A stretch of DNA of 51,383 nt from Lachnospiraceae bacterium (lineage in GTDB: Bacteria; Bacillota; Clostridia; Lachnospirales; Lachnospiraceae), in NCBI GenBank assembly GCA_021771755.1, contig JAETOL010000017.1:1-51383 (forward strand), given 5' to 3'. Made by a program: the position numbers and the translations under genes. Positions 1,400 through 50,741 of the stretch are shown here, piece after piece (position 1 is the stretch's first letter; each line of letters begins with the position of its first letter). The notes below the pieces were generated by a model. It saw nothing but the letters and a program-made list of their open reading frames with translations, did not search any database and was not told the DNA's origin.

Positions 1400-2047
1400 T
1401 CAGAAGAAAAAATCAAGCACCTCCTGCGCAGAGTCTGCAATCTTTAAGGGCATTGCATTTTTCAGTTCGTCTTCTGAACCATACCCATAAGAAACTGCCA
1501 GACACTTAAGTCCTGCTTTGCGGGCGCCAAAAACATCATGCTCCTTATCTCCTACCATAATCACCTGATCCCGGTGATCTCCCATATGAAGCCGGTCAAG
1601 CGCTTCTTCGATCACATCCGCCTTGCTGGTCCGTCCACCGTTCATTTCACTTCCTACAATTTCATGGAAGTATTTTGTGAGGTCAAAATGATCCAGTACC
1701 TTTTTTACAAATCGTTCTGGTTTGGAAGAAGCCACTGCCAGAATATAACCTTTTCCTCTCAGCTTATCCAGCATATCTTCCACACCCGGATATACCTGAT
1801 TCTCAAAAATACCAATATCTGTATATCGTTCTCTGTAATATTCAACTGCCCTGACTGCGGTTTCTTCATCCAGATCTGCATATTTCATAAACTGCTGAAG
1901 AAGGGGCGGGCCGACAAATACTTCAAGCTTTTTAAGATCCGGCTCCGGCTGCCCAAGCTTTTCTAATGCATATTGTACAGACTTTGTTATCCCCTCTCCT
2001 GATTCTGTCAAAGTTCCATCCAGATCAAATAAAATCACTTTATACAT
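1400..2047 (-). CDS. HAD-family phosphatase, phosphoglycolate phosphatase-like
   Basis: A 215-residue HAD subfamily IA hydrolase. Motif I is FDLDGTLTESG (nucleophile Asp9 and general acid Asp11), motif II the Ser in VASSKPERF, motif III the Lys in that segment, and motif IV GDKEHD. A four-helix cap lies between motifs I and II, as in Gph/PgmB-type enzymes. It probably dephosphorylates a small sugar or glycolate phosphate in the cytoplasm; the exact substrate is not visible. The ATG at 2047 has a good ribosome site (GGAGG, six bases upstream). A TATACT box sits just upstream within the 63-base gap to the previous gene, so a separate promoter is possible. Confidence 0.88.
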   Translation of the reverse strand: MYKVILFDLDGTLTESGEGITKSVQYALEKLGQPEPDLKKLEVFVGPPLLQQFMKYADLDEETAVRAVEYYRERYTDIGIFENQVYPGVEDMLDKLRGKGYILAVASSKPERFVKKVLDHFDLTKYFHEIVGSEMNGGRTSKADVIEEALDRLHMGDHRDQVIMVGDKEHDVFGARKAGLKCLAVSYGYGSEDELKNAMPLKIADSAQEVLDFFF

Positions 2048-2110
2048 AAGTTCCTCCAGTACTTTCCTAACACATCCTAAAAGATTCTGATTATTCGTAT
2101 GGATAGTATA

Positions 2111-2920
2111 TCATGATTTATTTTTTTCGTCTATGAAAATTCCATGTACATGGTTTCCATAATCCAGAACAGCCAGTTCCGTAACCACCTTCTTCGCCTG
2201 GGACTCCTGCCGGCTTTTTTGTTCCGGAACGATCCGGTCCCCCTGCCACTTCCACCGGGTATCTTTTCCATTTATTTTTAAGTACAGAATCTGTACCTCT
2301 CTGTTTCCCCGGATTTTAAAACAGGGATTTCTGTCTGTTTCCCCTTTCCAGCAGATCAGTTGGGGAACCTCTTCTGATTTCCAGGATCCAGGGGAATGTT
2401 TTCTTCTATTATTTATCTCGTCCGGAAAAGCAGACGGTGCAGGAGAAATCGTAGACGGAACTGCTGTTGCCAAAGGTAATGGTGGCGGAGACGGCATCAA
2501 AGCTGGCAGAGGTGTTGCCGTAGGCGTATTATCCGAAGTAATTTCCCATATTCTTTGTGTTTCTCCTCCTGACCAGAACGCCTCTTGAGAACGATCATCA
2601 TTTGCTGAAGTTCCATTTACCGGAGCCTCATTTTCTGATCCATAATTGTTTTCTATATTTTCCTGAATCGGATACGAATTTTCTCCATTTCCTTCCTCCT
2701 CCTGAGGATCTGTATCTTCCCAGATTTCTTCCTGTGATTCCTCCTGGACTCCCGGATTCCCTGCCGATTCCTCCCAGTCCCATGGAAGATCGGTGTTTTC
2801 TCCTGTTCCCATCTCTACCTGAAAGCCCCCAAGTTCCTGCTCTGCGGACATGGCCGATATCTTTCCCGGCATCATCAGTAGGATGAACATAAAGATCCAG
2901 TTCCAGCATTTCTTATTCAT
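2111..2920 (-). CDS. Secreted acidic/Pro-rich protein paired with a Ser/Thr kinase
   Basis: 269 residues, not recognised as a known family. The first 23 or so residues form a signal peptide (NKKCWNWIFMFILLMMPG, cleavage near ISAMSA). Next come about 110 residues very rich in Glu, Asn and Gly, then a Pro/Ala/Thr/Ser linker near residues 130-165. The end is a compact Lys/Trp-containing domain of about 90 residues with QLICWKGETDRNPCFKI, which has two Cys and might be a small beta domain. The start overlaps the kinase gene end by 8 bases, so the two are translationally coupled. Membrane kinases in Clostridia often have such partners, but the role here (ligand, substrate or wall-anchored sensor) is inference. 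Confidence 0.75.
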   Translation of the reverse strand: MNKKCWNWIFMFILLMMPGKISAMSAEQELGGFQVEMGTGENTDLPWDWEESAGNPGVQEESQEEIWEDTDPQEEEGNGENSYPIQENIENNYGSENEAPVNGTSANDDRSQEAFWSGGETQRIWEITSDNTPTATPLPALMPSPPPLPLATAVPSTISPAPSAFPDEINNRRKHSPGSWKSEEVPQLICWKGETDRNPCFKIRGNREVQILYLKINGKDTRWKWQGDRIVPEQKSRQESQAKKVVTELAVLDYGNHVHGIFIDEKNKS

Positions 2921-4160
2921 AATGTCCCTCCGTATAGTTCCTTAAATACTGTTTCCATACCTTAAAATTCCATCCTTCCTGAGCTGCTTTTTCCTTTTTT
3001 CTCTTTCTCTGGAATTTTTCATATAAATCCAGACTTTCCTCTCCTCTTCCCTGTCTTGCCAAAAACAGACCATACGCGGCATATTCTTCCTCTTTTGCAC
3101 TTCTTTCTTTTGCAAGTTGTCTGTAATATCCCTCAGCCTTTACCATATTGCCCTGAAGTTCACTGTTTTCTGCCAGCAGATACAGGAGACGAATCTGATG
3201 ATCGGGTTTCGTATATCGATACAGCAAATGTCGGCTATGTTCCTCAACCTGACTGCATACTGTTTCCCTGATATTTTTTCCTCCGGACTGAAAGTCCATT
3301 GTTCTATACATGGAAATCACAGAAGACACCGCTGTTTCAAAAGGAACGGATGGTGTCTGCATCCCGACGTAAACGCCGAAACATAAGACAACCGTCACAA
3401 TACCACACATGACCAATGCAAGTCCCCTCCATCGTTTCAAAGACAACGGCTGAAGTTTTTTTAACCCGTCTATGGCATTTTCGGCATTTTTCCATCTCTT
3501 TTCCGGCTGTGTACGACAGCATTTCCAAATGAAAAAAGCAAGATAAGGATATTGCAAAAAACACGGAATACGTCTTTTTCCGCAAAGACTCTCCATTGTT
3601 TTTCCAAGTGCATAAATATCACTGGTTTCTTTTAGTATCCCATGATACTGTTCCGGTGCCGCATATCCCTTTGTGCCATAACAGAGGATCTTCTTCCTGT
3701 CATATCCCAGCACTGCACTTCCAAAATCAATCAGGTACAAGGTTCCATTGTCTGTCAGCATCAGATTTTCCGGCTTCAGATCTCCATAATAAACGGCAGG
3801 CTTTCTTGAATGAAGATACGATAATATATCCAGGATTCTTTTTCCCATAGAAATGATTTCTTCTGCCGAAAACCCCTTTCCTTCTTCCAGACACTGTCTC
3901 AATGATTTTCCCTGAATATATTCCATCACCAGAAAACACCGATTCTCCTGTTCTGTATAATCGATCATCCGAGGCAGTGACGGATGATCCAGAAGGCGCA
4001 GAAACTCAGCCTCTTTTTTTCTTTCCAAAGGCAGTTCCTTCACGGCTCGATAAATCCCCAGATCGATATCCCTGGCAAGATATAAGGTTCCCTGTCCGCC
4101 TTTACCGATTCTGTCTACAATACAGTACCGCCCCTTTAAAATAATTCCGATCAGCTCGAT
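2913..4160 (-). CDS. Membrane eukaryotic-type Ser/Thr protein kinase, apparently starting at a non-AUG codon
   Basis: A Hanks-type kinase of about 415 residues. The Gly-rich loop IGKGGQGTLYLARD (residues 18-31), the ATP-anchoring Lys in AVKEL (Lys41), the catalytic loop YYGDLKPEN (Asp127; YGD replaces the usual HRD) and DFGSA (Asp145) are all visible. A single membrane segment follows at about 246-268. The extracellular C-terminal region looks helical and repeat-like (TPR-like spacing: AEGYYRQLAKERSAKEEEY). The usual start finder would take the GTG at 4043, but that is the Val of AVK and would remove the Gly loop and Lys region. The frame is open only back to a TGA at 4199-4197, with no ATG, GTG or TTG before the Gly loop. 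ATC at 4160 lies eight bases after a strong GAGGGGAG. The downstream partner is the overlapping secreted protein. Confidence 0.85.
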   Translation of the reverse strand: MELIGIILKGRYCIVDRIGKGGQGTLYLARDIDLGIYRAVKELPLERKKEAEFLRLLDHPSLPRMIDYTEQENRCFLVMEYIQGKSLRQCLEEGKGFSAEEIISMGKRILDILSYLHSRKPAVYYGDLKPENLMLTDNGTLYLIDFGSAVLGYDRKKILCYGTKGYAAPEQYHGILKETSDIYALGKTMESLCGKRRIPCFLQYPYLAFFIWKCCRTQPEKRWKNAENAIDGLKKLQPLSLKRWRGLALVMCGIVTVVLCFGVYVGMQTPSVPFETAVSSVISMYRTMDFQSGGKNIRETVCSQVEEHSRHLLYRYTKPDHQIRLLYLLAENSELQGNMVKAEGYYRQLAKERSAKEEEYAAYGLFLARQGRGEESLDLYEKFQRKRKKEKAAQEGWNFKVWKQYLRNYTEGHYE

Positions 4161-38292: not shown

Positions 38293-39942
38293 TTATTTTT
38301 TTCTGCGTTTCAGATAAACAATCACACCTACGATCACAACTGCCGCAACACCAAGAATCACAAATGGAAGAATCAAGGTATTGTCTCCTGTATTTACAGC
38401 AGACGTAGAATCACTGTCTGTTTCCTTGCTTTCCTCTGCTGAACTGTTCTGATCTTTTTTATCAGAAGAAACGTTCTGCACTGTCTCCTCTTCTTGTTCT
38501 GGCGCTGAAGTTACCGGTACCAGCGTATGATCCGAAGTGTTCTCCGGTGCAGGTGTCACATTCGTATCGGAAGAACCGGCATCACCATATCCGTCTTCCT
38601 GAATTTCCTCACCTACCAGCGGTCTGCTTCCTGCAATTCCAAAAGGACTAAAAGAATGAGTGCTGAAGATCATCGTACTTCCATCTACGCTTGGCACAAT
38701 TGTCTCCATAGCTCCGCTGTCCAGAAGATGTTCTATTGTATATGTATATCCAGCCTTTACAGGCACCGTAACGCTAATATACTCTCCATCCGGAATTTCA
38801 TATTCTGTGTTATTTTTCAGATCCCAGAGTTCAAATTCATATGATTTGAATACATTTGCCTCTGTTTCATTTGTAAACTGATAGTCTTCTCCGCTGGTTG
38901 CACGGAATTGTACGTACCATGGAAGATTGATTCCGGACACAGAAATACCATTGCAGGAATGATTTTCTGCTGCTGCTGCCTGCTGTTCCTCCTCGGAAAG
39001 GTCCTCTTCCGCATCTGTAGGACGTGAGTCTTCCGGCTCGTTTTCATCTCTGTCAAAAATATTATCACTGTCGGATTCCGGGTTTTCTTCTTCTCCCGGT
39101 GTTACGGTCGGTTCCGGATTTTCTTCTCCCGGGGTCACAGTCGGTTCCGGCTTTTCCTCTCCTGGGGTCACAGTTGGTTCCGGATTTTCTTCTCCTGGGG
39201 TCACAGTCGGCTCCGGATTTTCCTCTCCCGGGGTCACAGTCGGTTCCGGATTTTCTTCTCCCGGGGTCACAGTCGGTTCCGGTATCTCTTCTCCCGGGGT
39301 CACGGTCGGTTCCGGATTTTCCTCTCCCGGGGTCACAGTCGGCTCCGGTGTCTCTTCCTCTGGGGTCCCAGTTGGAGCGGGCATCGCCTCTTCCTGATCT
39401 GAATTCCCCTGAGAGCCCTCACAATTTTCATCGCCGCTTACTTCTTCATCCGTAGTGCTGTCTGTTGTCTCTGACTCCGAATCGTCATACGCATCCTCAG
39501 AATCCTGCTGCTCTGTATACTGTTCTTCTTCCCATTCCTCTTCACTGTTGTCTTCGTTTTCAGACTCATTTTCCATACTGCTGACTACAACAGTAACACT
39601 ACTGTAAATTCCATCAGACTCTCCATCCCATCCGGAAATTCTGGAAAGATCTGCTGAATCATAAGGTCTGAACACTACATCATAAGACTCAATCCGCTGT
39701 GATGGAATATTAGATCCATCTACCCAGGAAAGAGTACCATACTCACTGGATGGGAGAGAAATATCTGATAAAGGGACAGGCTCATCTATTGTCACATTAT
39801 CCGGAATTAAACTGCTGACCTTAATATCAGTATTTCCACCATATACTGCAGCCGGCTGTATCTGCCCAGATACTAATACTGCAGTCAAAGCTGCAGCAGC
39901 TAAAAACTGTACGTTTCTTTTATTGATATTACTCTTCTTCAT
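38293..39942 (-). CDS. Repeat-rich surface protein with a C-terminal wall/membrane anchor
   Basis: 549 residues. A signal peptide (about 1-34) comes first, then a region of about 90 residues with strand-like text. A Glu/Asp/Ser-rich stretch follows, then eight copies of an 11-residue PEPTVTPGEEx repeat (about 200-290). A domain of about 120 residues contains YVSVTV-like and YTIEHLLDSG segments. The end is a sorting-like region with VNTGD, a hydrophobic segment and KRRKK. The TGD signal resembles the non-canonical sortase motifs of Lachnospiraceae. The protein is probably a wall-attached stalk that displays the C-terminal domain. The promoter region upstream carries a palindrome. Confidence 0.85.
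   Translation of the reverse strand: MKKSNINKRNVQFLAAAALTAVLVSGQIQPAAVYGGNTDIKVSSLIPDNVTIDEPVPLSDISLPSSEYGTLSWVDGSNIPSQRIESYDVVFRPYDSADLSRISGWDGESDGIYSSVTVVVSSMENESENEDNSEEEWEEEQYTEQQDSEDAYDDSESETTDSTTDEEVSGDENCEGSQGNSDQEEAMPAPTGTPEEETPEPTVTPGEENPEPTVTPGEEIPEPTVTPGEENPEPTVTPGEENPEPTVTPGEENPEPTVTPGEEKPEPTVTPGEENPEPTVTPGEEENPESDSDNIFDRDENEPEDSRPTDAEEDLSEEEQQAAAAENHSCNGISVSGINLPWYVQFRATSGEDYQFTNETEANVFKSYEFELWDLKNNTEYEIPDGEYISVTVPVKAGYTYTIEHLLDSGAMETIVPSVDGSTMIFSTHSFSPFGIAGSRPLVGEEIQEDGYGDAGSSDTNVTPAPENTSDHTLVPVTSAPEQEEETVQNVSSDKKDQNSSAEESKETDSDSTSAVNTGDNTLILPFVILGVAAVVIVGVIVYLKRRKK
39090..39355 (-). repeat. 33-base tandem repeat array coding PEPTVTPGEEx
   Basis: About eight near-identical 33-base units in frame, differing mainly at the last codon (N, I or K). 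Copy-number change by slippage would shorten or lengthen the stalk in steps of 11 residues without a frameshift. Confidence 0.9.
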
Positions 39943-41085: not shown

Positions 41086-41821
41086 TTATCTGGTTACAAT
41101 TATAGTACTATATCCCGCATCACGCAATCTCTGTTCCATATCAACTGCATTTCCAATCTGTTGAAATGCCCCCGTCTGTACCTTATATAGATCATTTTCC
41201 CGGAGAATATACGAAGGAAATCCCTGGTCTGTAAGCTGGTACAACATTCTGTCTGCATTTTCCCGCTTACGAAATACTCCCGTCTGCACACGATAATATA
41301 AGGGATCTTCTACAGTTTCTCCTGTAAGTGTTCCTAAAACCGCTCCGGCGATCCCCTCTGCCATCTCATCAAATTTCTCATCAAAAAGCTTGTTGTCTTC
41401 ATCGGAATTCAAAAATCCAGCTTCAACCAGCAGTGCCGGCATTTTTGTTCTTCGTAGTACGACAAGTCCAGGCCGTTCTTTCACACCGATTTCCCGAAAA
41501 CCGATTTCCCCCATAGCTCCCAGAATATTTTCTGCCATTTCATATTTTATGCCGCTTTTATCATATACAAGGACTTCTACCCCTTGATATTTGTTGGCTT
41601 CAGGACTGCTGTTCCTGTGAAAAGAAATAAAGTAATCCGCACCTGATTCATTTGCAAGTCTTGCCTTTTCAAAGGGTGTCTGGTATACATCATCCACCCG
41701 TGTATAGACCACATTGATTCCATTTCTCTCCAAAATCTCTCCTACAGAAAGTGTCAGCTTCAATGTATCATCTTTTTCCTGTCTTTCCTGATAAACAGCT
41801 CCCGGATCTCCTCCACCATGT
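41086..41821 (-). pseudogene. CwlC-like N-acetylmuramoyl-L-alanine amidase, 3' piece of an interrupted gene
   Basis: The body of an Amidase_3 enzyme followed by a SPOR domain. The text begins HGGGDPGAVYQERQEKDDTL and continues with SFHRN (zinc His) and LLVEAGFLNSDED (catalytic Glu). Two SPOR half-repeats follow (YYRVQTGVFRKRENADRML and LYKVQTGAFQQIGNAVDM). Such enzymes cleave the bond between MurNAc and the peptide. The frame is open upstream to the recombinase stop at 41829 but has no start there. The only apparent start, TTG 41763, would remove the first zinc ligand. The missing 5' end lies at 43753-43787. Joined, they give 254 residues, about the length of B. subtilis CwlC. In this arrangement the enzyme is inactive or not made. 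Confidence 0.88.
41816..41821. repeat. Right attachment core, ACATGG
   Basis: Minus-strand ACATGG, where the element meets the amidase 3' piece. It lies seven bases beyond the recombinase stop codon and is identical to 43753-43758. Confidence 0.75.
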
Positions 41822-41828
41822 GAAAGCG

Positions 41829-43499
41829 CTATTTTGCGGAAATATTTCTACTATCTGGTTTTGAAAAACGATAATAAATCTCTAGGCACTGGTCTTCCCG
41901 CACTTCAATTCGATCGATCAATTCCATAAGTATCTGCTTGCAGATATATTTTTGCTTTTTATAATCTGAAAGACCTCCAGTTCCAAAACTATCCCTTCCT
42001 TTTTCGTTTTTTTCCATCTGTCGTAAATATATCTCTTCTTTTTTTGAATAATCCTCTGAATAAGAAAGAAATTCTTCTCTGGTCAAAAGTCCGCTCCTAT
42101 AGTCCTCATAGGATTGTTTTTTTAATTTTCGTACTTTTGTCAATTCTGTCTCCATTTTGAACAATTCCTTGTTTTTTTGTATATTCTCTTCCTTCTTTTT
42201 CTGTTCCCATGCTTTCTCCCATGCACTAAACTGTTCAGATTGCGAAAAAAACAACTCCTGAAGATCATCTTTGACCAAACGTTCCAAAAGTTCTGCCGGC
42301 AGCGTATGAGGAGAGCAGAATTCTTTTCCTTTCCTTTTATAAGTTCCACAGTAAAAACAAGCGTTTATACTTCCATCTGCACGTTTCCAATGATTTAGAA
42401 TCATTGTTTTCTTACATCTGCCGCAAAAAACCAACCCTGACATAATATTATCATCATAGTTTTCAGCTGTTTGGCGGTCATTACGCTGAAGTAATTTTTG
42501 TGTTCTTTCCCAGACTGCTTGACTGATGATTGCCTCATGGGTATTCGGCACCACGATCCAGTTTTTACGATTCACCACATGCTGCCTGCTTCTCATATTC
42601 TGCACTTTCTTTCCCTGAACCATAGCTCCTGTATAAGTTTCATTTTTCAGCATATGGTGCACCGTAGCATACGTCCAACCGGAAGACGTTTCCGTTCTGA
42701 TACCGTTTCTATATTTTTCTCCACATTCTTTTTTATATTCAGAAGGGCATGGTATCCCTTCATTATTTAATTGTTCTGCAATCTCCTGCTTACTTTTTCC
42801 ATTAAGAAACAGTTCGAAAACAGTTCGAACAATTGATGCCGCAGCTTCATCGATCAGTAAATGGTTTTTATCACGGGGATCTTTTCGATATCCGTAGCAT
42901 GCAAAAGCTCCAATAAATTCTCCTGCCCGCTGTTTTGTCCTCATAGTTGCCTGTATCTTCCTTGAAATATCTCTTGCATACTGTTCATTAAATATATTTT
43001 TTATGGGAAGAAGCATATCATATGACTGACGAAGACTGTCAATCCCGTCTGAAACAGCCACAAAGCGAACTCCCAGCTCTGGAAAAATCCGCTCCAGATA
43101 TCGTCCGGAATCTATATAATCTCTTCCAAATCTGGAAAGGTCCTTAACTATCACACAATTGATCAGCCCAAGCCTTATATCTTCTATCATTTTCTTAAAA
43201 CCCGGGCGATCAAAATTAGTCCCTGTATATCCGTCATCCACATACAACTCATAAAAACAGATATCCGGCTGTTTTTCCAAATATTCCACTAAAAACTTTT
43301 TCTGATTAGCCACACTGTCACTTTCCACCTTGTCTCCATCTTCTCTGGATAAGCGGATATAAAGAGCTGCATGATATTGGAACTTGCGATAGCTATTCTC
43401 GCATGGGCATACAGACTGTGATGAAATACGCTCTACCTTTTTTTCCCTATCGTATTCTCCCAAAAACGGATCCTGGCATTCCGGCTTTTTTCTGCTCAT
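41829..43499 (-). CDS. Large serine recombinase of the amidase-interrupting element
   Basis: 556 residues. After a 44-residue N-terminal extension, the resolvase catalytic domain begins with LYIRLSRED (catalytic Ser). KDLSRFGRDYIDSGRYLE is the Arg/Asp signature. The recombinase domain and Cys zinc ribbon follow (LVFCGRCKKTM, CFYCGTYKRKGKEFC). A long coiled coil and a C-terminal DNA-binding end complete it. The ATG at 43499 has GGGAGG upstream and overlaps the small upstream gene by ATGA. All motifs are intact, so it should be active. The stop is seven bases from the crossover core. SpoIVCA/SprA-type recombinases that excise sporulation-gene inserts belong to this class. Confidence 0.93.
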   Translation of the reverse strand: MSRKKPECQDPFLGEYDREKKVERISSQSVCPCENSYRKFQYHAALYIRLSREDGDKVESDSVANQKKFLVEYLEKQPDICFYELYVDDGYTGTNFDRPGFKKMIEDIRLGLINCVIVKDLSRFGRDYIDSGRYLERIFPELGVRFVAVSDGIDSLRQSYDMLLPIKNIFNEQYARDISRKIQATMRTKQRAGEFIGAFACYGYRKDPRDKNHLLIDEAAASIVRTVFELFLNGKSKQEIAEQLNNEGIPCPSEYKKECGEKYRNGIRTETSSGWTYATVHHMLKNETYTGAMVQGKKVQNMRSRQHVVNRKNWIVVPNTHEAIISQAVWERTQKLLQRNDRQTAENYDDNIMSGLVFCGRCKKTMILNHWKRADGSINACFYCGTYKRKGKEFCSPHTLPAELLERLVKDDLQELFFSQSEQFSAWEKAWEQKKKEENIQKNKELFKMETELTKVRKLKKQSYEDYRSGLLTREEFLSYSEDYSKKEEIYLRQMEKNEKGRDSFGTGGLSDYKKQKYICKQILMELIDRIEVREDQCLEIYYRFSKPDSRNISAK

Positions 43500-43669
43500 C
43501 GTCCTTCCTCCCGGTCAAAAATCTTTTGATCACCAAACAAAAAATCTTCTGCTTTTTCCCGAACATTTATCCCATATTGGTCGATTATAAAAAAAATTTT
43601 TTCCTCTAAAGACCCGTTTTCCCCAAAAAATCTTTTTATCTGCCAGGAGACAACCTCTTTCTTTTTCAA
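43496..43669 (-). CDS. 57-residue protein coupled to the recombinase, candidate directionality factor
   Basis: This short frame starts at TTG 43669, eight bases after GGAGAG, and stops by ATGA overlap with the recombinase start. The protein begins MKKKEVVSWQIKRFFGENGS, continues with IIDQYGINVREKAEDFLFG and is charged. No family is recognised. Position, size and coupling fit a recombination directionality factor, as for SprB of the SPbeta-type system, but the sequence gives no direct proof. The open frame with a good ribosome site supports it being real. Confidence 0.65.
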   Translation of the reverse strand: MKKKEVVSWQIKRFFGENGSLEEKIFFIIDQYGINVREKAEDFLFGDQKIFDREEGR

Positions 43670-43752
43670 ATTTGCTTCTCTCCATCTCTGCCTTTTCCAC
43701 AGATTATGACGAAAGCCTGTCCTCTATGCCGTTTTTCCGCAAAAAACTGTCT

Positions 43753-43758
43753 CCATGT
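43753..43758. repeat. Left attachment core, ACATGG
   Basis: Minus-strand ACATGG, spanning the end of the Gly codon, the His codon CAT and GG of the amidase 5' piece. It is identical to 41816-41821. Confidence 0.75.
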
Positions 43759-43787
43759 CCTGCATCAAGCATGATTTTATATGCCAA
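43753..43787 (-). pseudogene. CwlC-like amidase, 5' piece of the interrupted gene
   Basis: From TTG 43787 the frame reads MAYKIMLDAGHG, the N-terminal strand and first zinc ligand (His) of an Amidase_3 domain, after which the match stops at the core. AGGGGG stands eight bases before the TTG; ATG 43772 is the alternative start. In frame this piece joins GGTGGAGGAGATCCG of the 3' piece. Confidence 0.85.
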
Positions 43788-43818: not shown

Positions 43819-43845
43819 CATTATATGCATTTTTTCATTCTATGT
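43819..43845 (-). promoter_or_regulatory. Candidate sporulation-type (sigma-K-like) promoter of the split amidase
   Basis: The minus strand has AC at 43845-43844, 16 bases, then CATATAATG (43827-43819). The Bacillus sigma-K consensus is AC, 16-17 bases, CATAnnnTA; one position differs here. The ribosome site follows 20-25 bases later. It overlaps the end region of the DUF5688 gene. Confidence 0.4.
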
Positions 43846-45814: not shown

Positions 45815-46026
45815 TTAAAAATTGACAACTTTTGAAGTCTGCGAATTTGCACGTTTTTCTAGCTGTTTTAATTCTTGCTGTGCATCTTCCAAGCCTAAAT
45901 GCGTGTACACATTCAATGTTACACTAATATCTGAATGCCCCATTAAATATTGCAATGTCTTAGCACTTATACCACTTCTAGCCATATTAGAACAATATGT
46001 ATGTCTGCATATATGTGGACGTGTCA
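45815..46026 (-). pseudogene. C-terminal fragment of a tyrosine integrase
   Basis: About 70 residues with the catalytic end of a phage-type integrase: PHICRHTYCSNMARSGI (H-x2-R box), TLQYLMGHSDISVTLNVY (second His and active Tyr) and THLG. The rest, including the first catalytic Arg, is missing. Upstream the frame merges with the end of a serine recombinase, so the second mobile element has replaced or displaced the 5' part. The protein cannot be active. Confidence 0.88.
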
Positions 46027-47360
46027 AGTATGGGACAAAAAAAAATTTCTTTTTTCTTGCCGGATAGTACCTGACCATTCCAATCAGGTACCCCAGCACT
46101 TTTATTATCTTCCAAAAAATCGCTCTTGTTGTCCTGCTCAAGCATCTTTGCATCACGTTCAGACTCCTCTATCTTTCGTCTGATTTCTTCCAGCTGTCTG
46201 CCTATCTTTTCTGCTTTCTGCTTGTACAGTTCCCGATCAATACAACCATCTTTGTACCCATCATAAAGTCTCATTTTTTCAGAAGACAACTGGCGGCTCT
46301 GTTTCAACAATTCTGCAACATTCGTCTCCATACCTTTGCTCTGGTTCTTTGATTCAACAACTTTCCGGTTTTCCAGCATGGAAGCTGCAAACAGATGAAC
46401 AAGCTCCAGGATATGCTTTTCCATTGGCTCACGTCTGACCACTAGGCTTCGACAGACATGATCACCGCTGGTACGCCCATCCGAGCATTTCAGCAGATGC
46501 TCCGTTTCTCTTACCAGACAATGACCACAGTGTGCACACAGCATCAGTGCTGGCTGTTTCTTGCGTCTTGCCAGCGTATAATTGGTTCTTGTTTCTGCAA
46601 CACCTCTGGATTTTTTCGGATGCAGTCTGTTCGCTTTTTCAAACAGTTCCCTGTCAACAATCGGATCATGGTGGTTTTCCAGCCTGATCCAGTCAGACTC
46701 GTCATTAAGAACCGCCTTATGACCGGTGTGCATACTGCAGCGTGTTTTACCCCATATCCGGGTTCCAATATAAATCTCATCCCGTATGATTGCAGATACT
46801 GTGGTTGGATTCCAGCGTTTTTTCATGATGGTATCAAACCGTCGGAACTGAACCTGCTCTCCTCTTGACATTTTCTGCTCATCACAGGTGGCAATTTCCT
46901 GTTTGTTCAGTTCCCTTGTGATCTCTGCAAAGCTCATACCTTCTGCAGCCATCTGGAAGATCATCTTCACCACTTTAGCCGCATCCGGATCAATTTCCAA
47001 CCTTCCATCTTTGCCCTTTCTATAACCATATCTGGCATTTACCGGAAGCTAAAATCCCACTTCCAGATAGTCCCTGCCAAACCTGGAAAAATCTTTCACA
47101 ACTACACAGCCGATCTGTCCGCTTTTCATATCCTCCTGCAGCTGTTGAAAACCATTGCGTTTGAAGTGGGTGCCGCTGACACCGTCATCCACATATTCAA
47201 GGATATCCGACTCATCCACACCAAGCTGATCGATCACAAACGATTTCAACAGGATTCTCTGAGAAGTCACACTATCACTTTCCAGTTTGGTTCTGCCATC
47301 CACATTCCCATCTTCCATAGATAAACGGATATAGACAGCTGTTTTCCTATTTTCTGTCAT
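45987..47360 (-). pseudogene. Third tandem serine recombinase, decayed with an internal deletion
   Basis: The N-terminal piece (47049-47360) has VYIRLSMEDG with catalytic Ser and VVVKDFSRFGRDYLEVG, then TAG. In the same frame after the stop come NARYGYRKGKDGRLEIDPDAA, the recombinase domain, a zinc ribbon (LCAHCGHCLV) and a coiled coil. The part between (normally about 70-90 residues: the end of the catalytic domain and its dimer helix) is absent. The last codons run into the integrase fragment. It starts with a four-base overlap after the second recombinase, so it was once part of a three-gene operon. Confidence 0.85.
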
Positions 47361-49048
47361 CTTGACTGTGCCTCCTTCTCTTTCATTATCTTTTGCAATT
47401 CAGCGAACTGGTCATCATATACCAGTTTGATCTCATAATCATACTTACCATGGATAATAATGGAATCCACAAAGGCATCCACCATTTCTTTTGTCAGCTT
47501 CCGCTTAGACATATAAGTATGTATCACTTTCCCCCATCCTTCTTCGATATGATAATCTTTGGAATACCGTACCTGCGCCGTCAATACTGCATCCAGACGG
47601 CTCTTGATGTTTTCTATTTCATTGGAATAGATACGGGAAAACTGCATGTACTCTTCTTCTGTAATCAGGCGTTCCGAATAATCCTCATATAAATCAGATT
47701 TACGCTTACTGATCCGGCTCAGTTCCCGCCGAAGTTTCCCTACTTCCTTGTCCAAAAGCAAATATTGCGTCTGGTTTCTGGAAGCGGAGTTCATTTCCCG
47801 GATCATTTTTTCTGTATCCAATACGTTTTTCATATGTGACTGGATCAGACGAAGGACATCTTCATCCACGTATTCTTTTTTGACCCTGTGCCCCTTGCAC
47901 TGGTTTCCTCCTGATTTATGGTTTGCATTGGCACCGCAGATATAATAAAATGTCCCGGACTTTTCCCTGGACAGGATCATGCGGTTGCCACATCCTCCAC
48001 ACCTGATCTTGCCGGTATAAAAATTCTGGCTCCGGATGGCTCCATTATTCAGCTGATGCCTCTTTTTATATTCTTCCGTAATTTCCCGGATTTTTTCCTG
48101 TACCTGGCGGAACAGCTCTTTATCTATAATCCCTTCGTGGGTATTCTCTGCATAGATCCACTCACTCTCCGGTCGGTTCCTCTGCTTGTTTCCCTGAAAA
48201 ACGCTCTGCTGATATTTTCCATATACGGAATCGCCGGTACAATGTACATCCTGAAGCACACGTTTTACTTCGTAATTATTCCACGGTTTGGACTCTGGGG
48301 ACGGCTTTTCCCCGGATCTGTAATATTCCCTTTGCAAAGTTGGGGATAAGATGCCATCTGCGTTCAGTTTTTTTGCAATATCACTGTAGCTGTAGCCATC
48401 CATATACATAGAAAAAATTGCCCGTAAATGTCCGGCAGCTTCCTCATCAACTACCAGCTGGTGCCTGTCCTGTTCTGATTTCCTATATCCATAGGGTTCC
48501 CAGGCACCGGTAAATTTTCCTTCTCTCCATAGGGCTTTTTTTGCACTGCTGCTCTTTTTTGCAAGGTCTTTGGAATAGAACTCATTGATAATATTCTTTA
48601 AGGGAACAGTCAGATCTACTCCCTCACGGAAAGAATCAAAATCATCCGTCACTGCCAGGAACCGTACATGAAAGAACGGGAATACACGCTCAATATAATT
48701 GCTTGTTTCTACATAATTCCTGCCAAGCCTGGACAAATCCTTTACAATCACGCAGTTGATTTTCCCATGCTTGATATCTTCCATCATCTGCGTAAATCCA
48801 GGACGATCAAAATTTGTACCGGAATAATCAGAATCCTTATAAACTTCTGCAACCGAAATATCCTCTGTATCAGCCACATAGTTTTTCATCAGTTCCACCT
48901 GGGTTTCTATCGTCCCCCTCTCTATCGTTTCCTCTGTTTCCATAGAAATCCTTGCATATAACCCTGCCCGGAACGGTCTTTTGATCTCTTCCTGAACGGC
49001 TGCACTGCTGACCGTTTCAGGAATGCTTTTCCTGCTTTTTCGTGCCAT
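47357..49048 (-). CDS. Large serine recombinase, second of three
   Basis: About 563 residues from the ATG at 49048 (MARKSRKSIPE), preceded by AGGAGG. A slightly earlier TTG start at 49057 is less likely. The catalytic domain has LYARISMETEE and VIVKDLSRLGRNYVETSNYIE. The zinc ribbon is IRCGGCGNRMI and YYICGANANHKSGGNQC, followed by a long coiled coil. It is complete and overlaps both neighbouring recombinase genes by a few bases. Confidence 0.93.
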   Translation of the reverse strand: MARKSRKSIPETVSSAAVQEEIKRPFRAGLYARISMETEETIERGTIETQVELMKNYVADTEDISVAEVYKDSDYSGTNFDRPGFTQMMEDIKHGKINCVIVKDLSRLGRNYVETSNYIERVFPFFHVRFLAVTDDFDSFREGVDLTVPLKNIINEFYSKDLAKKSSSAKKALWREGKFTGAWEPYGYRKSEQDRHQLVVDEEAAGHLRAIFSMYMDGYSYSDIAKKLNADGILSPTLQREYYRSGEKPSPESKPWNNYEVKRVLQDVHCTGDSVYGKYQQSVFQGNKQRNRPESEWIYAENTHEGIIDKELFRQVQEKIREITEEYKKRHQLNNGAIRSQNFYTGKIRCGGCGNRMILSREKSGTFYYICGANANHKSGGNQCKGHRVKKEYVDEDVLRLIQSHMKNVLDTEKMIREMNSASRNQTQYLLLDKEVGKLRRELSRISKRKSDLYEDYSERLITEEEYMQFSRIYSNEIENIKSRLDAVLTAQVRYSKDYHIEEGWGKVIHTYMSKRKLTKEMVDAFVDSIIIHGKYDYEIKLVYDDQFAELQKIMKEKEAQSR

Positions 49049-49049
49049 T

Positions 49050-50741
49050 TTATACAACCTCCTTTATCTTGACCTGCAGATTGTTATCCGGATCTGTTGC
49101 AACCTCCACTCCCATAGCCGGAAGCTGTGTCAGCAATGCCTGATAACAGTCATCAAAGTCAAAGACGATCTCAATATTCTTTTTGTCATGGACTCTGATT
49201 TCCCGAATCAATTCCACGATTACTGTCCTGGTCAGCACTTCAATATCCTGATATTTCACAAAATAATCCAGCCATGTGTTAGAAGCATCTGCTTTTTCCA
49301 GTATGTTATCCATTTCTTTCTGGATTGCCCGGATACTCTCTTCTGCATTCCTAAGCCTTTTTCCATATGCTGCATGAAGTTCTACATAATCTTCTTTTGA
49401 TACGATGCCCTCTTTCATATCGGAATAAAGCATCATGCGGAGTTCCTTACAGCGTTCTGTCTCCATTTTTTTCTTTTCCAGCCTGTCCTGGAGTTTTTTC
49501 ACATTGATTTCCTGAAATGGTACAGTCCCGATAAACTCCAACACCCTTTTCAAATGCATGATGTTCTGGATATGCTGTTTCAGCATTACCAATACCACGT
49601 TTTCCAGATCTTTTTCCGGGATTCTGTGACTGGAGCAGCGTTTCGTTTCTTTATTTGTGGAACATAAATAATAGGCATATTTCTTTCCACCAACTGTTGA
49701 GACCTTTCTCGTCATCGGTGCCCCGCAATCCGCACATACAGCAATGCCGGACAGCAGATACACCTGCTTCTGGTCAGGAGAAGTACGGGTATCCATCCCC
49801 AAAAGCCGCTGGACGATCTCAAAATCCCTTTCACTTACCAGCGGCTCATGGTTCTTTTCAATACGAATCCAATCATCTTCCGGCTTTACGTAGGACTGCT
49901 TCACTTTATGGTTCGGTGTCGTACGTTTCCCCTGCACAAGGTTTCCAATGTAAACCTCATTTTCCAGTATTCTGCGTACCGTAACAGAACTCCAAAGAGC
50001 CTGCTCTTTCTGTCGGAACCCGGTCTCATAATGACTGCCGCTGCTGATCTTATATTCAAATGGGGAAAGCACACCCAGTTCATTCAGGCGGTTGGCAATC
50101 GCATCCTGGCTCATTCCCTGCAGTTTCATCTTAAAGATGTCCTGTACTACACTGCCTGCAACCGGATCAATCTCCAGCTTATGCTTGTCTGCCTTAACTT
50201 TCTGATACCCGAATGCCACAAAAGGTGTCACACATTCTCCCTTTTTCCTCTTAATTTCAAGGTTACTTCTGATCTTAATGGAAATGTCACGGCAATAAGC
50301 ATCGTTGATTAAGTTTTTGAATGGGATAATAATTTCATCGGCCTGATTCTTTCCCTGAAGGCTGTCATAATTGTCATTTATGGCAATAAAGCGCACACCA
50401 AGAGCCGGGAATAAACGTTCAATGTACTTCCCGGAATCAATGTATTCCCGCCCAAACCGAGATAAATCCTTCACCACTACGCAATCAACAATCCCACGCC
50501 TGATATCTTCCAGCATAGCCTGGAATGCAGGGCGCTCAAAATTAGAGCCTGAGTAGCCATCGTCAACCCGGACGGAAACAACTTCTATATCTTTTTTGTC
50601 TTTCAGGAAATCCAGAATCAGAGCCTTCTGGTTAGAAATGCTGTTACTTTCCATTTTTGCAGAACTGGAAAGATCGCCATCTTCTTTGGATAATCTGACA
50701 TAGATGGCGGCACGATAGATTTTATTGAAATTCTGATACAT
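49050..50741 (-). CDS. Large serine recombinase, first of three
   Basis: 563 residues. The catalytic domain has IYVRLSKEDG and VVVKDLSRFGREYIDSGKYIE. The zinc ribbon is AVCADCGAPMTRKV with YYLCSTNKETKRCSSHRI, then a coiled coil and a short C-terminal domain. The ATG at 50741 has AGGAGG upstream. All key residues are present. It probably cooperates with the second recombinase for integration and excision of the element. Confidence 0.93.
   Translation of the reverse strand: MYQNFNKIYRAAIYVRLSKEDGDLSSSAKMESNSISNQKALILDFLKDKKDIEVVSVRVDDGYSGSNFERPAFQAMLEDIRRGIVDCVVVKDLSRFGREYIDSGKYIERLFPALGVRFIAINDNYDSLQGKNQADEIIIPFKNLINDAYCRDISIKIRSNLEIKRKKGECVTPFVAFGYQKVKADKHKLEIDPVAGSVVQDIFKMKLQGMSQDAIANRLNELGVLSPFEYKISSGSHYETGFRQKEQALWSSVTVRRILENEVYIGNLVQGKRTTPNHKVKQSYVKPEDDWIRIEKNHEPLVSERDFEIVQRLLGMDTRTSPDQKQVYLLSGIAVCADCGAPMTRKVSTVGGKKYAYYLCSTNKETKRCSSHRIPEKDLENVVLVMLKQHIQNIMHLKRVLEFIGTVPFQEINVKKLQDRLEKKKMETERCKELRMMLYSDMKEGIVSKEDYVELHAAYGKRLRNAEESIRAIQKEMDNILEKADASNTWLDYFVKYQDIEVLTRTVIVELIREIRVHDKKNIEIVFDFDDCYQALLTQLPAMGVEVATDPDNNLQVKIKEVV

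What the first reader, a model, noticed from the sequence alone, without database searches (positions are those of the whole stretch)
41086..43787. Self-excisable 1.94-kb element splits a CwlC-like cell-wall amidase exactly at its zinc-ligand codon
Seen in the sequence: a 5' piece coding MAYKIMLDAGHG (43787-43753) and a 3' piece coding HGGGDPGAVY through a SPOR domain (41821-41086) flank one recombinase gene. ACATGG stands at both junctions. Joining GGACATGG to TGGAGGAG gives DAGHGGGDPGA in frame and a 254-residue protein. B. subtilis CwlC, the mother-cell lytic amidase, has the same domains and about 255 residues (established). Skin and related elements interrupt sporulation genes and are excised by serine recombinases (established). 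I infer that this is a minimal intervening element that may switch the amidase on by excision.
Basis: partly seen in the sequence, partly recalled or inferred. Interest (0 to 1): 0.94.

Follow-up and report, generated by a model that had tools for sequence, protein, structure and literature searches.

The report
Self-excising inserts splitting spore-wall genes
In a Blautia gut bacterium a 1.9-kb DNA insert carrying its own recombinase splits a cell-wall amidase gene exactly at a catalytic-motif codon; it is predicted to cut itself out during spore formation, and close relatives of the recombinase mostly lie at pieces of three spore-wall gene families.

Summary
Observation confirmed: a 1,937-bp segment bounded by ACATGG splits an Amidase_3+SPOR gene inside its DAGHGG motif; joining gives 254 aa. 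Of 43 Blautia orthologues 9 are split at this codon, 34 are whole by match start. Interrupted copies remain under strong purifying selection (dN/dS 0.02 between two interrupted species). The amidase occurs only with sporulation-type sigma factors (43/0/4/17) and has a SigK-like promoter (32 of 32). Of the 80 nearest recombinase loci kept, 71 carry pieces of SPOR amidase (26), CwlD (32) or PdaB (13); controls 0 of 80 and 0 of 16. In the window's own genome cwlD is also split, by a recombinase-less insert with similar att arms, suggesting excision in trans. Excision was not observed. It is a minimal, multi-target variant of skin-like sporulation intervening elements.

The parts
43820..43845 (-). 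SigK-like promoter of the amidase: AC-N16-CATATAAT
   Evidence: CATAnnnT[AG] in 32 of 32 Blautia amidase upstreams examined (100 shuffles: mean 2.2, max 6); AC 14-18 nt before it in 20 of 32 (mean 0.5, max 3). C. difficile SigK boxes AC / CATATAAT: PMC3789822 (passages). Function inferred.
43753..43787 (-). 5' piece of the amidase gene, TTG start, (M)AYKIMLDAGHG
43753..43758 (-). attL core ACATGG (first copy of the repeat); likely crossover dinucleotide CA of the His codon, 43757-43756
   Evidence: centre of symmetry of attP between C and A uniquely best in 24 of 29 loci
43734..43744 (-). inner half-site TTTTGCGGAAA (recombinase arm, left)
   Evidence: 11-bp perfect inverted repeat with 41832-41842
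43701..43727 (-). SigE-like promoter ATA-N16-CATAATCT before the small ORF
   Evidence: pattern in 24 of 73 (window plus 72 clade loci; window is one of the 24; 60 shuffles: mean 1.2, max 6); with another window definition, window left out: 24 of 76 clade loci, 1 of 73 viral, 0 of 16 other Blautia LSR loci. Absent from the sister species G032. Function inferred.
43496..43669 (-). 57-aa ORF, candidate recombination directionality factor (excision factor)
   Evidence: same small-protein family before 34 of 37 held-out clade recombinases; the window's own match is weak (E 0.0042). No convincing Pfam, PHROG or NCBIfam match
41829..43499 (-). large serine recombinase, 556 aa, intact
   Evidence: three LSR domains; Y47, R49, S51 among columns invariant in 19 of 19; TnpX, YokA
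41832..41842 (-). inner half-site TTTCCGCAAAA (recombinase arm, right)
41816..41821 (-). attR core ACATGG (second copy of the repeat)
41086..41821 (-). 3' piece of the amidase gene: Amidase_3 remainder and SPOR domain
   Evidence: SPOR part matches PDB 1x60, sporulation-specific amidase
41822..43758 (-). the whole 1,937-bp intervening element

Best explanation
The 1,937-bp segment is a minimal two-gene intervening element, a large serine recombinase plus a likely excision (directionality) factor, that splits a SPOR-domain cell-wall amidase gene at the His codon of its catalytic DAGHG motif and is predicted to be cut out precisely in the mother cell during sporulation, restoring the gene. Shown: the two pieces, repeats, inverted half-sites, intact recombinase, conserved small ORF, whole orthologues in relatives, and purifying selection on interrupted copies. 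Inferred: early in the mother cell a SigE-type promoter makes the small factor and the recombinase; the pair recombines attL with attR at the CA dinucleotide of the His codon; the circle is lost with the doomed mother cell; the joined amidase is then made from a SigK-type promoter and probably helps lyse the mother cell, as CwlC does. The forespore keeps the insert. The same recombinase may also act in trans on the recombinase-less insert that splits cwlD in this genome.
For: Exact in-frame joint, 254 aa. 34 of 43 Blautia orthologues whole by match start, 9 split at the same codon; both pieces seen in 7 of the 9 (the contigs of G013 and G050 end inside the element). dN/dS between interrupted G000 and G032 0.020 (69 synonymous, 7 non-synonymous); median 0.051 in 8 pairs of interrupted copies and 0.072 in 44 pairs of whole ones, pairs not independent. 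Five species with interrupted copies form one clade (97*) and G000/G032 another (99*), which suggests old insertion. Amidase only where SigE/SigK-type sigma genes were found: 43/0/4/17, p 4e-12. SigK-like -10 in 32 of 32 upstreams examined. Small ORF family in 34 of 37 held-out clade loci, 1 of 73 viral, 0 of 16 other LSR loci. SigE-like site before it in 24 of 73. Of the 80 recombinase loci kept (of 471), 71 carry pieces of SPOR amidase, CwlD or PdaB; controls 0 of 80 and 0 of 16. attP symmetric about the His-codon CA in 24 of 29. Precedents: skin, gin and yin elements (passages).
Against: No excised joint was seen. Of the 120 best of 5968 public proteins listed, the five at 88% identity or more (P0001-P0003, P0015, P0084) lack the normal N-terminus; whole ones begin at 87% (members inside clusters not seen), so excision is at most rare in sequenced cells. 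The window's small ORF matches its family only weakly (E 0.0042; G032 0.049), and held-out loci are kin of the training loci. The SigE-like site is found in about a third of loci, many of them close kin, and not in G032. AC at -35 in 20 of 32. The recombinases of G000 and G032 are 73% identical (dS 1.33, dN 0.21) against 96% for the amidase, and G003, their whole sister, shows gain or loss nearby, so separate, later insertions are not excluded and part of the selection seen could predate them. It is not shown that this species sporulates.
Confidence: 0.76

Rival explanations
1. A selfish mobile element that uses conserved catalytic motifs of dispensable spore-wall genes as landing sites; it leaves only at random or for transfer, and the split genes are simply inactive in carriers.
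For: Near-identical recombinases sit at different genes (the target labels need 29 changes on the recombinase tree, shuffled mean 40.1); several relatives carry cargo or ORFs that look by eye like mobile-element genes; the five nearest public proteins are of the interrupted form.
Against: Interrupted copies keep start, frame and promoter (7 of 7 seen) and dN/dS 0.02-0.07 (8 pairs); interruption is shared by a 5-species clade; SigE-like promoter before the small ORF in about a third of loci; the window's element has no transfer gene.
Confidence: 0.15
2. A reversible phase switch in growing cells: random excision and loss give a sub-population with active amidase.
For: yin was found both integrated and excised at all time points of culture (PMC10747680, passages).
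Against: SigK-like amidase promoter and co-occurrence with sporulation sigma genes; no excised allele among the nearest public proteins listed.
Confidence: 0.05
3. The 3' piece is still translated as an amidase with a substitute N-terminus from the element, so no excision is needed.
For: In several relatives an in-frame start lies upstream in the insert (MPSHGG in G032, MENFRKLLPAHGG in G013; also cwlD of G032, 224 aa, and of G000, 198 aa).
Against: In the window's amidase no ATG, GTG or TTG lies in frame before the His codon; the first start is 41763. The normal promoter and the start of the conserved motif are cut off.
Confidence: 0.04

Closest known systems
skin elements in sigK (B. subtilis, C. 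difficile)
   Same: Serine-recombinase element inside a mother-cell sporulation gene; in C. difficile a 72-aa SigE- and SpoIIID-controlled directionality factor is, with the recombinase, enough for excision in E. coli (PMC5025042, passages).
   Different: Prophage-like and larger (19 genes in C. difficile), target sigK; here 1.94 kb, two genes, target a wall amidase; sigK of this genome has an open frame without a break.
gin element in gerE of B. cereus
   Same: Non-prophage intervening element; recombinase GirC with factor GirX, excised in sporulation (PMC5595907, passages).
   Different: 28.6 kb, 31 genes, three recombinases, other target gene.
yin element in yabG
   Same: Intervening element in a SigK-controlled sporulation gene, candidate directionality factor (PMC10747680, passages).
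   Different: Prophage-like and said there to be unique to one strain; here a family across Lachnospiraceae and some other Firmicutes (names) with three kinds of target gene.
SP-beta in spsM, vfbin in spoVFB
   Same: Excision restores a sporulation gene (PMC4191935, start of abstract in a listing; vfbin named in a passage).
   Different: Prophage or prophage-like; different targets.
B. subtilis CwlC
   Same: Amidase_3 plus SPOR, about 255 aa (recalled); SPOR domain matches PDB 1x60.
   Different: CwlC gene is not interrupted (recalled); mother-cell lysis by this protein not tested.

Membership tests
sporulation gene-intervening element (skin-like) | lies in a gene with the sequence marks of a sporulation gene | tested here: met
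   SigK-like -10 in 32 of 32; gene only where sporulation-type sigma genes were found, p 4e-12; indirect, expression not tested
sporulation gene-intervening element (skin-like) | carries a serine recombinase | tested here: met
sporulation gene-intervening element (skin-like) | direct-repeat att sites whose joining restores the gene | tested here: met
   in silico only
sporulation gene-intervening element (skin-like) | directionality factor | tested here: inconclusive
   conserved small ORF in place, no functional test, window match weak
sporulation gene-intervening element (skin-like) | mother-cell control of excision genes | tested here: inconclusive
   SigE-like site in 24 of 73 loci, the window among them, G032 not
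sporulation gene-intervening element (skin-like) | excision during sporulation observed | not testable with these tools
   needs PCR or reads from sporulating cells
prophage-like intervening element | phage genes in the element | tested here: not met
   besides recombinase and small ORF only short overlapping ORFs in 1,937 bp; no relative over 42% identity among the 80 viral loci kept of 242
CwlC-type amidase | Amidase_3 followed by SPOR in one 254-255 aa protein | tested here: met
CwlC-type amidase | lyses the mother cell late in sporulation | not testable with these tools
   inferred from domains and promoter

The most novel reading that the evidence does not exclude
One recombinase and its small partner run a multi-locus developmental DNA-elimination programme: in the mother cell they remove their own element from the SPOR amidase gene and, in trans, recombinase-less inserts from cwlD (a 1,729-bp insert with a symporter gene in the window's genome, a 190-bp insert in its sister species G032). 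The spore-wall genes of these gut bacteria would then be split genes, assembled only in a cell line that dies, much as ciliates clear inserts from their somatic nucleus.
Probability: 0.45. Interest if true: 0.95.

Novelty: new variant of a known kind. Interest (0 to 1): 0.87.

Why it matters
The sporulation intervening elements in the papers I saw are a few large prophage-like or island-like cases. Here is a family in Lachnospiraceae and some other Firmicutes found at three kinds of wall gene (SPOR amidase, CwlD, PdaB), down to a two-gene, 1.9-kb form and to recombinase-less inserts. It makes testable whether leaving the mother cell's genome is a general life style of mobile DNA in spore formers, and could explain why such spore genes look truncated in commensal genomes. 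Compact recombinase and factor pairs with short att sites could also be useful tools.

Tried and rejected
Rejected: a chance repeat (same codon split in 9 of 43 genomes); a dead gene; a phage element (no relative above 42% identity among the 80 viral loci kept; target genes on 0 of 80, though viral DNA held was shorter, median 7.7 kb against 15.3 kb).

Led nowhere: family libraries for the small ORF (20 members scanned; best E 0.18 in Pfam, 0.011 in PHROGs, 0.055 in NCBIfam). Curated NCBIfam cut-offs for CwlD and PdaB are passed neither by the six pieces scanned nor by the four joined proteins; but no Blautia genome passes the CwlD cut-off either (0 of 64). Nine of the 80 loci show no known target (L088, L108, L112, L115, L127, L131, L144, L157, L165); four of them end within 0.7 kb of the recombinase end, the others remain unexplained. 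In the first family survey (299 genomes, 15 non-own loci fetched) a split target was recognised in 10 of 15; L070, L078, L079, L080 and L084 show none. Literature: searches listed no paper on an intervening element in a cwlC-, cwlD- or pdaB-type gene; only titles and abstract starts of the listings were read for most; the library lacks most subscription papers and all preprints. A large catalogue of such recombinases (PMC10083194) was seen in the listing only and may hold members.
Full report
Observation. Reading the minus strand of the window, a gene starts at TTG 43787 and reads (M)AYKIMLDAGHG, then breaks; its continuation HGGGDPGAVY... runs from 41821 to 41086. ACATGG stands at both breaks, 1,937 bp apart, and joining them gives one 254-aa frame. 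Pfam finds Amidase_3 and SPOR in the 3' piece and the three domains of a large serine recombinase in the 556-aa protein between the pieces. The SPOR part matches the solved SPOR domain of a sporulation-specific amidase (1x60), and the catalytic part matches amidases such as CwlV (1jwq). In the integrated state no ATG, GTG or TTG precedes the His codon in frame, so the split gene should not make a complete enzyme.

Relatives. The genus is Blautia: the contigs of G032, G006, G008, G002 and G005 agree in length with records named Blautia. Of 64 genomes, 43 have the orthologue at E below 1e-100; in 34 the match begins at residue 1-4 and in 9 at residue 7-10. In 7 of these 9 I saw both pieces, broken at the same His codon with start and frame kept; the contigs of G013 and G050 end inside the element, and their 3' pieces break there too. 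The inserts differ: recombinase with little else (G000, G032), added ORFs that look by eye like a toxin-antitoxin pair (G002), K+ and phosphate transporters (G005, G006, G008, and G013 and G050 as far as held), or a chemotaxis receptor without a recombinase (G061).

Is the split gene alive? Between the interrupted copies of G000 and G032, dS is 0.62 and dN 0.012 (69 synonymous against 7 non-synonymous differences, dN/dS 0.02). Over pairs with dS of 0.1-2, eight pairs of interrupted copies have a median of 0.051 and 44 pairs of whole copies 0.072; pairs share sequences (33 of 43 sequences used: nine had no locus at hand, G034 failed in extraction). On the amidase tree five interrupted species form one clade (97*) and G000 with G032 another (99*), with whole G003 as their sister. 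This is what is expected if the whole protein is still made. Against an old insertion in G000 and G032 stands the larger distance of their recombinases (73% identity, dS 1.33, dN 0.21; neighbouring genes have dS 0.68 and 1.55), so later, separate insertions are not excluded.

When is it used? SigE/SigK-type sigma genes were found in 47 of 64 genomes (only 1 match over the curated cut-off). All 43 genomes with the amidase have them; 17 have neither, 4 only the sigma genes. Upstream of the amidase CATAnnnT[AG] stands in 32 of 32 sequences examined (25 whole, 7 split; shuffles mean 2.2, max 6), with AC at the right distance in 20 of 32 (shuffles 0.5, max 3). In the window it is AC-N16-CATATAAT. 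In C. difficile SigE and SigK promoters share the -10 and differ at -35, ATA for SigE and AC for SigK; one SigK promoter reads AC / CATATAAT, and cwlD is under SigE (PMC3789822, passages). So late mother-cell expression is likely.

The recombinase family and its targets. A scan of named genomes with an alignment of 19 recombinases kept the best 80 of 471 loci; some are the same loci as in the unnamed set. Choosing by recombinase only, 71 of 80 carry a match to one of three wall genes on the held DNA: CwlD-like amidase 32, SPOR amidase 26, PdaB-like deacetylase 13; nine carry none (L116, which hits two, was set to SPOR by hand). Of the 58 amidase-type loci 56 are split, none seen whole, 2 undetermined; 28 of the 56 also hold a 5' piece. 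For PdaB both pieces were seen in 6 of 13. NCBIfam gives spore_cwlD as best family for the four CwlD-like pieces scanned and spore_ybaN_pdaB for the two PdaB-like ones, all below cut-off; it also matches the SPOR amidases weakly to spore_cwlD, and the one PdaB 5' piece scanned matched nothing. Controls: 0 of 80 viral recombinase loci and 0 of 16 other Blautia recombinase loci at 35-42% identity, 16 of the 18 such matches. Nearly identical recombinases occur at different targets, and L121 and L125, from one assembly, have recombinases identical over the compared stretch, one at CwlD and one at the SPOR amidase (quick tree with long-branch warnings).

Site. Taking both sides for 29 loci, attP is symmetric about the point between C and A of the His codon: unique best centre in 24 of 29 (one each at two other centres, three ties), mean 14.9 of 24 pairs against about 4-8 at other centres. 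All 29 share CA on both sides, which follows in part from how they were found. In the three PdaB joins made (L147, L145, L117) the element is reversed and breaks at the Trp codon of SFDAAWGNEDT, where TG on the coding strand is CA on the other; in L137, L156 and L083 the PdaB piece lies on the same strand as the recombinase, which this does not explain. CA of the His codon is therefore the likely crossover dinucleotide in the amidases.

Second gene. A small ORF, typically about 40-67 aa (...YTVEREFLSKFSVEELLIRIIKSH...), precedes nearly every recombinase of the clade. A profile from 23 odd-numbered loci finds it in 34 of 37 assessable even-numbered loci at E below 1e-4 (misses L118, L150, L162), in 1 of 73 viral loci (L167) and 0 of 16 others; the held-out loci are kin of the training loci. 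The window's 57-aa ORF scores E 0.0042 and that of G032 0.049. No library knows it; of 41 public relatives of one member the 3 with a legible name are 'hypothetical protein'. ATA-N16/17-CATAnnnT stands upstream of it in 24 of 73 loci, window included, G032 not (shuffles mean 1.2, max 6; many of the 24 are close kin); with another window definition and without the window, 24 of 76 clade loci, 1 of 73 viral and 0 of 16 other loci have it. In C. difficile the skin factor CD1234 is a 72-aa SigE-controlled protein that, with the recombinase, is enough for excision in E. coli (PMC5025042, passages). I therefore read the small ORF as a directionality factor; this is inference.

A second split gene in the same genome. 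The cwlD gene next to sigE of G000 is also split, at the His codon of DPGHGG, by a 1,729-bp insert holding a sodium:solute symporter and no recombinase; in G032 the insert is 190 bp. Of 13 Blautia cwlD loci looked at, these 2 are split and 11, G003 and G034 among them, are whole. Both inserts offer an in-frame start for the 3' piece. They carry GCG or GTG at 16-18 bp from the CA on each side, the position of GCG in the window's att arms (read by eye). dN/dS of cwlD between G000 and G032 is 0.059, with dS saturated. In G005, G006, G008, G013 and G050 a similar symporter gene stands between sigE and a whole cwlD, so how it came inside cwlD of G000 is open. No second recombinase of this clade was found in G000 at E below 1e-100; the next is 39% identical. 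Excision in trans is the simplest reading and is untested.

Known systems. skin, SP-beta/spsM, vfbin, gin (28.6 kb, three recombinases, needs GirC and GirX) and yin lie in sporulation genes and are excised (passages). The window's element works like them by anatomy, but is far smaller, not phage-like, and its family is found at wall genes. I found no paper describing it (searches named under tried and rejected).

Verdict. Observation confirmed; interpretation supported and widened. Open: direct proof of excision, the function of the small ORF, and whether this species sporulates.

Noticed in passing
L263:4014-2286 (-), that is G000:C118 about 36513-34785: cwlD of the window's own genome is split by a 1,729-bp recombinase-less insert with a sodium:solute symporter gene.
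   Followed up: partly
L265:1889-2078 (G032): cwlD split by a 190-bp insert; by eye it holds hairpin-like repeats and a T run.
   Followed up: partly
L053 about 1800-3936 (G061): SPOR amidase split by an insert with a 605-aa chemotaxis receptor on the other strand and no recombinase; a related recombinase on another contig lacks its N-terminus.
   Followed up: partly
L047, L048, L050 (and L051, L052 as far as held): About 6.3-kb versions of the element carry TrkH/TrkA-type K+ uptake, a PHO4 phosphate transporter and a DUF47 protein (Pfam on L047; others by similarity).
   Followed up: partly
window 45815-49057: Another cluster of serine recombinase ORFs beside what looks by eye like the C-terminal part of a tyrosine integrase; possibly a second insertion.
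   Followed up: no
L121 and L125 (JAJQFQ); L090 and L092 (CAJTDX); L089 and L142 (CAJTIR): Single assemblies carry two elements, one at CwlD and one at the SPOR amidase; in JAJQFQ the two recombinases are identical over the compared stretch.
   Followed up: partly
L072 and L074, upstream of the recombinase: An ORF that looks by eye like the sigma-factor-like gene of conjugative transposons, suggesting that some members are ends of larger elements whose 5' gene piece lies beyond the held DNA.
   Followed up: no
L167 (IMG/VR contig of 127.5 kb): The closest viral recombinase (42%) has a relative of the small ORF before it (E 5.9e-8): a possible phage ancestor.
   Followed up: no
window 43701-43727: GGACAGG lies between the two boxes of the SigE-like promoter and resembles the B. 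subtilis SpoIIID site as I recall it (GGACARG, from memory); it recurs in L087, L094 and L163.
   Followed up: no
window 38293-39942: Surface-protein-like ORF with EENPEPTVTPGE-type repeats (by eye).
   Followed up: no
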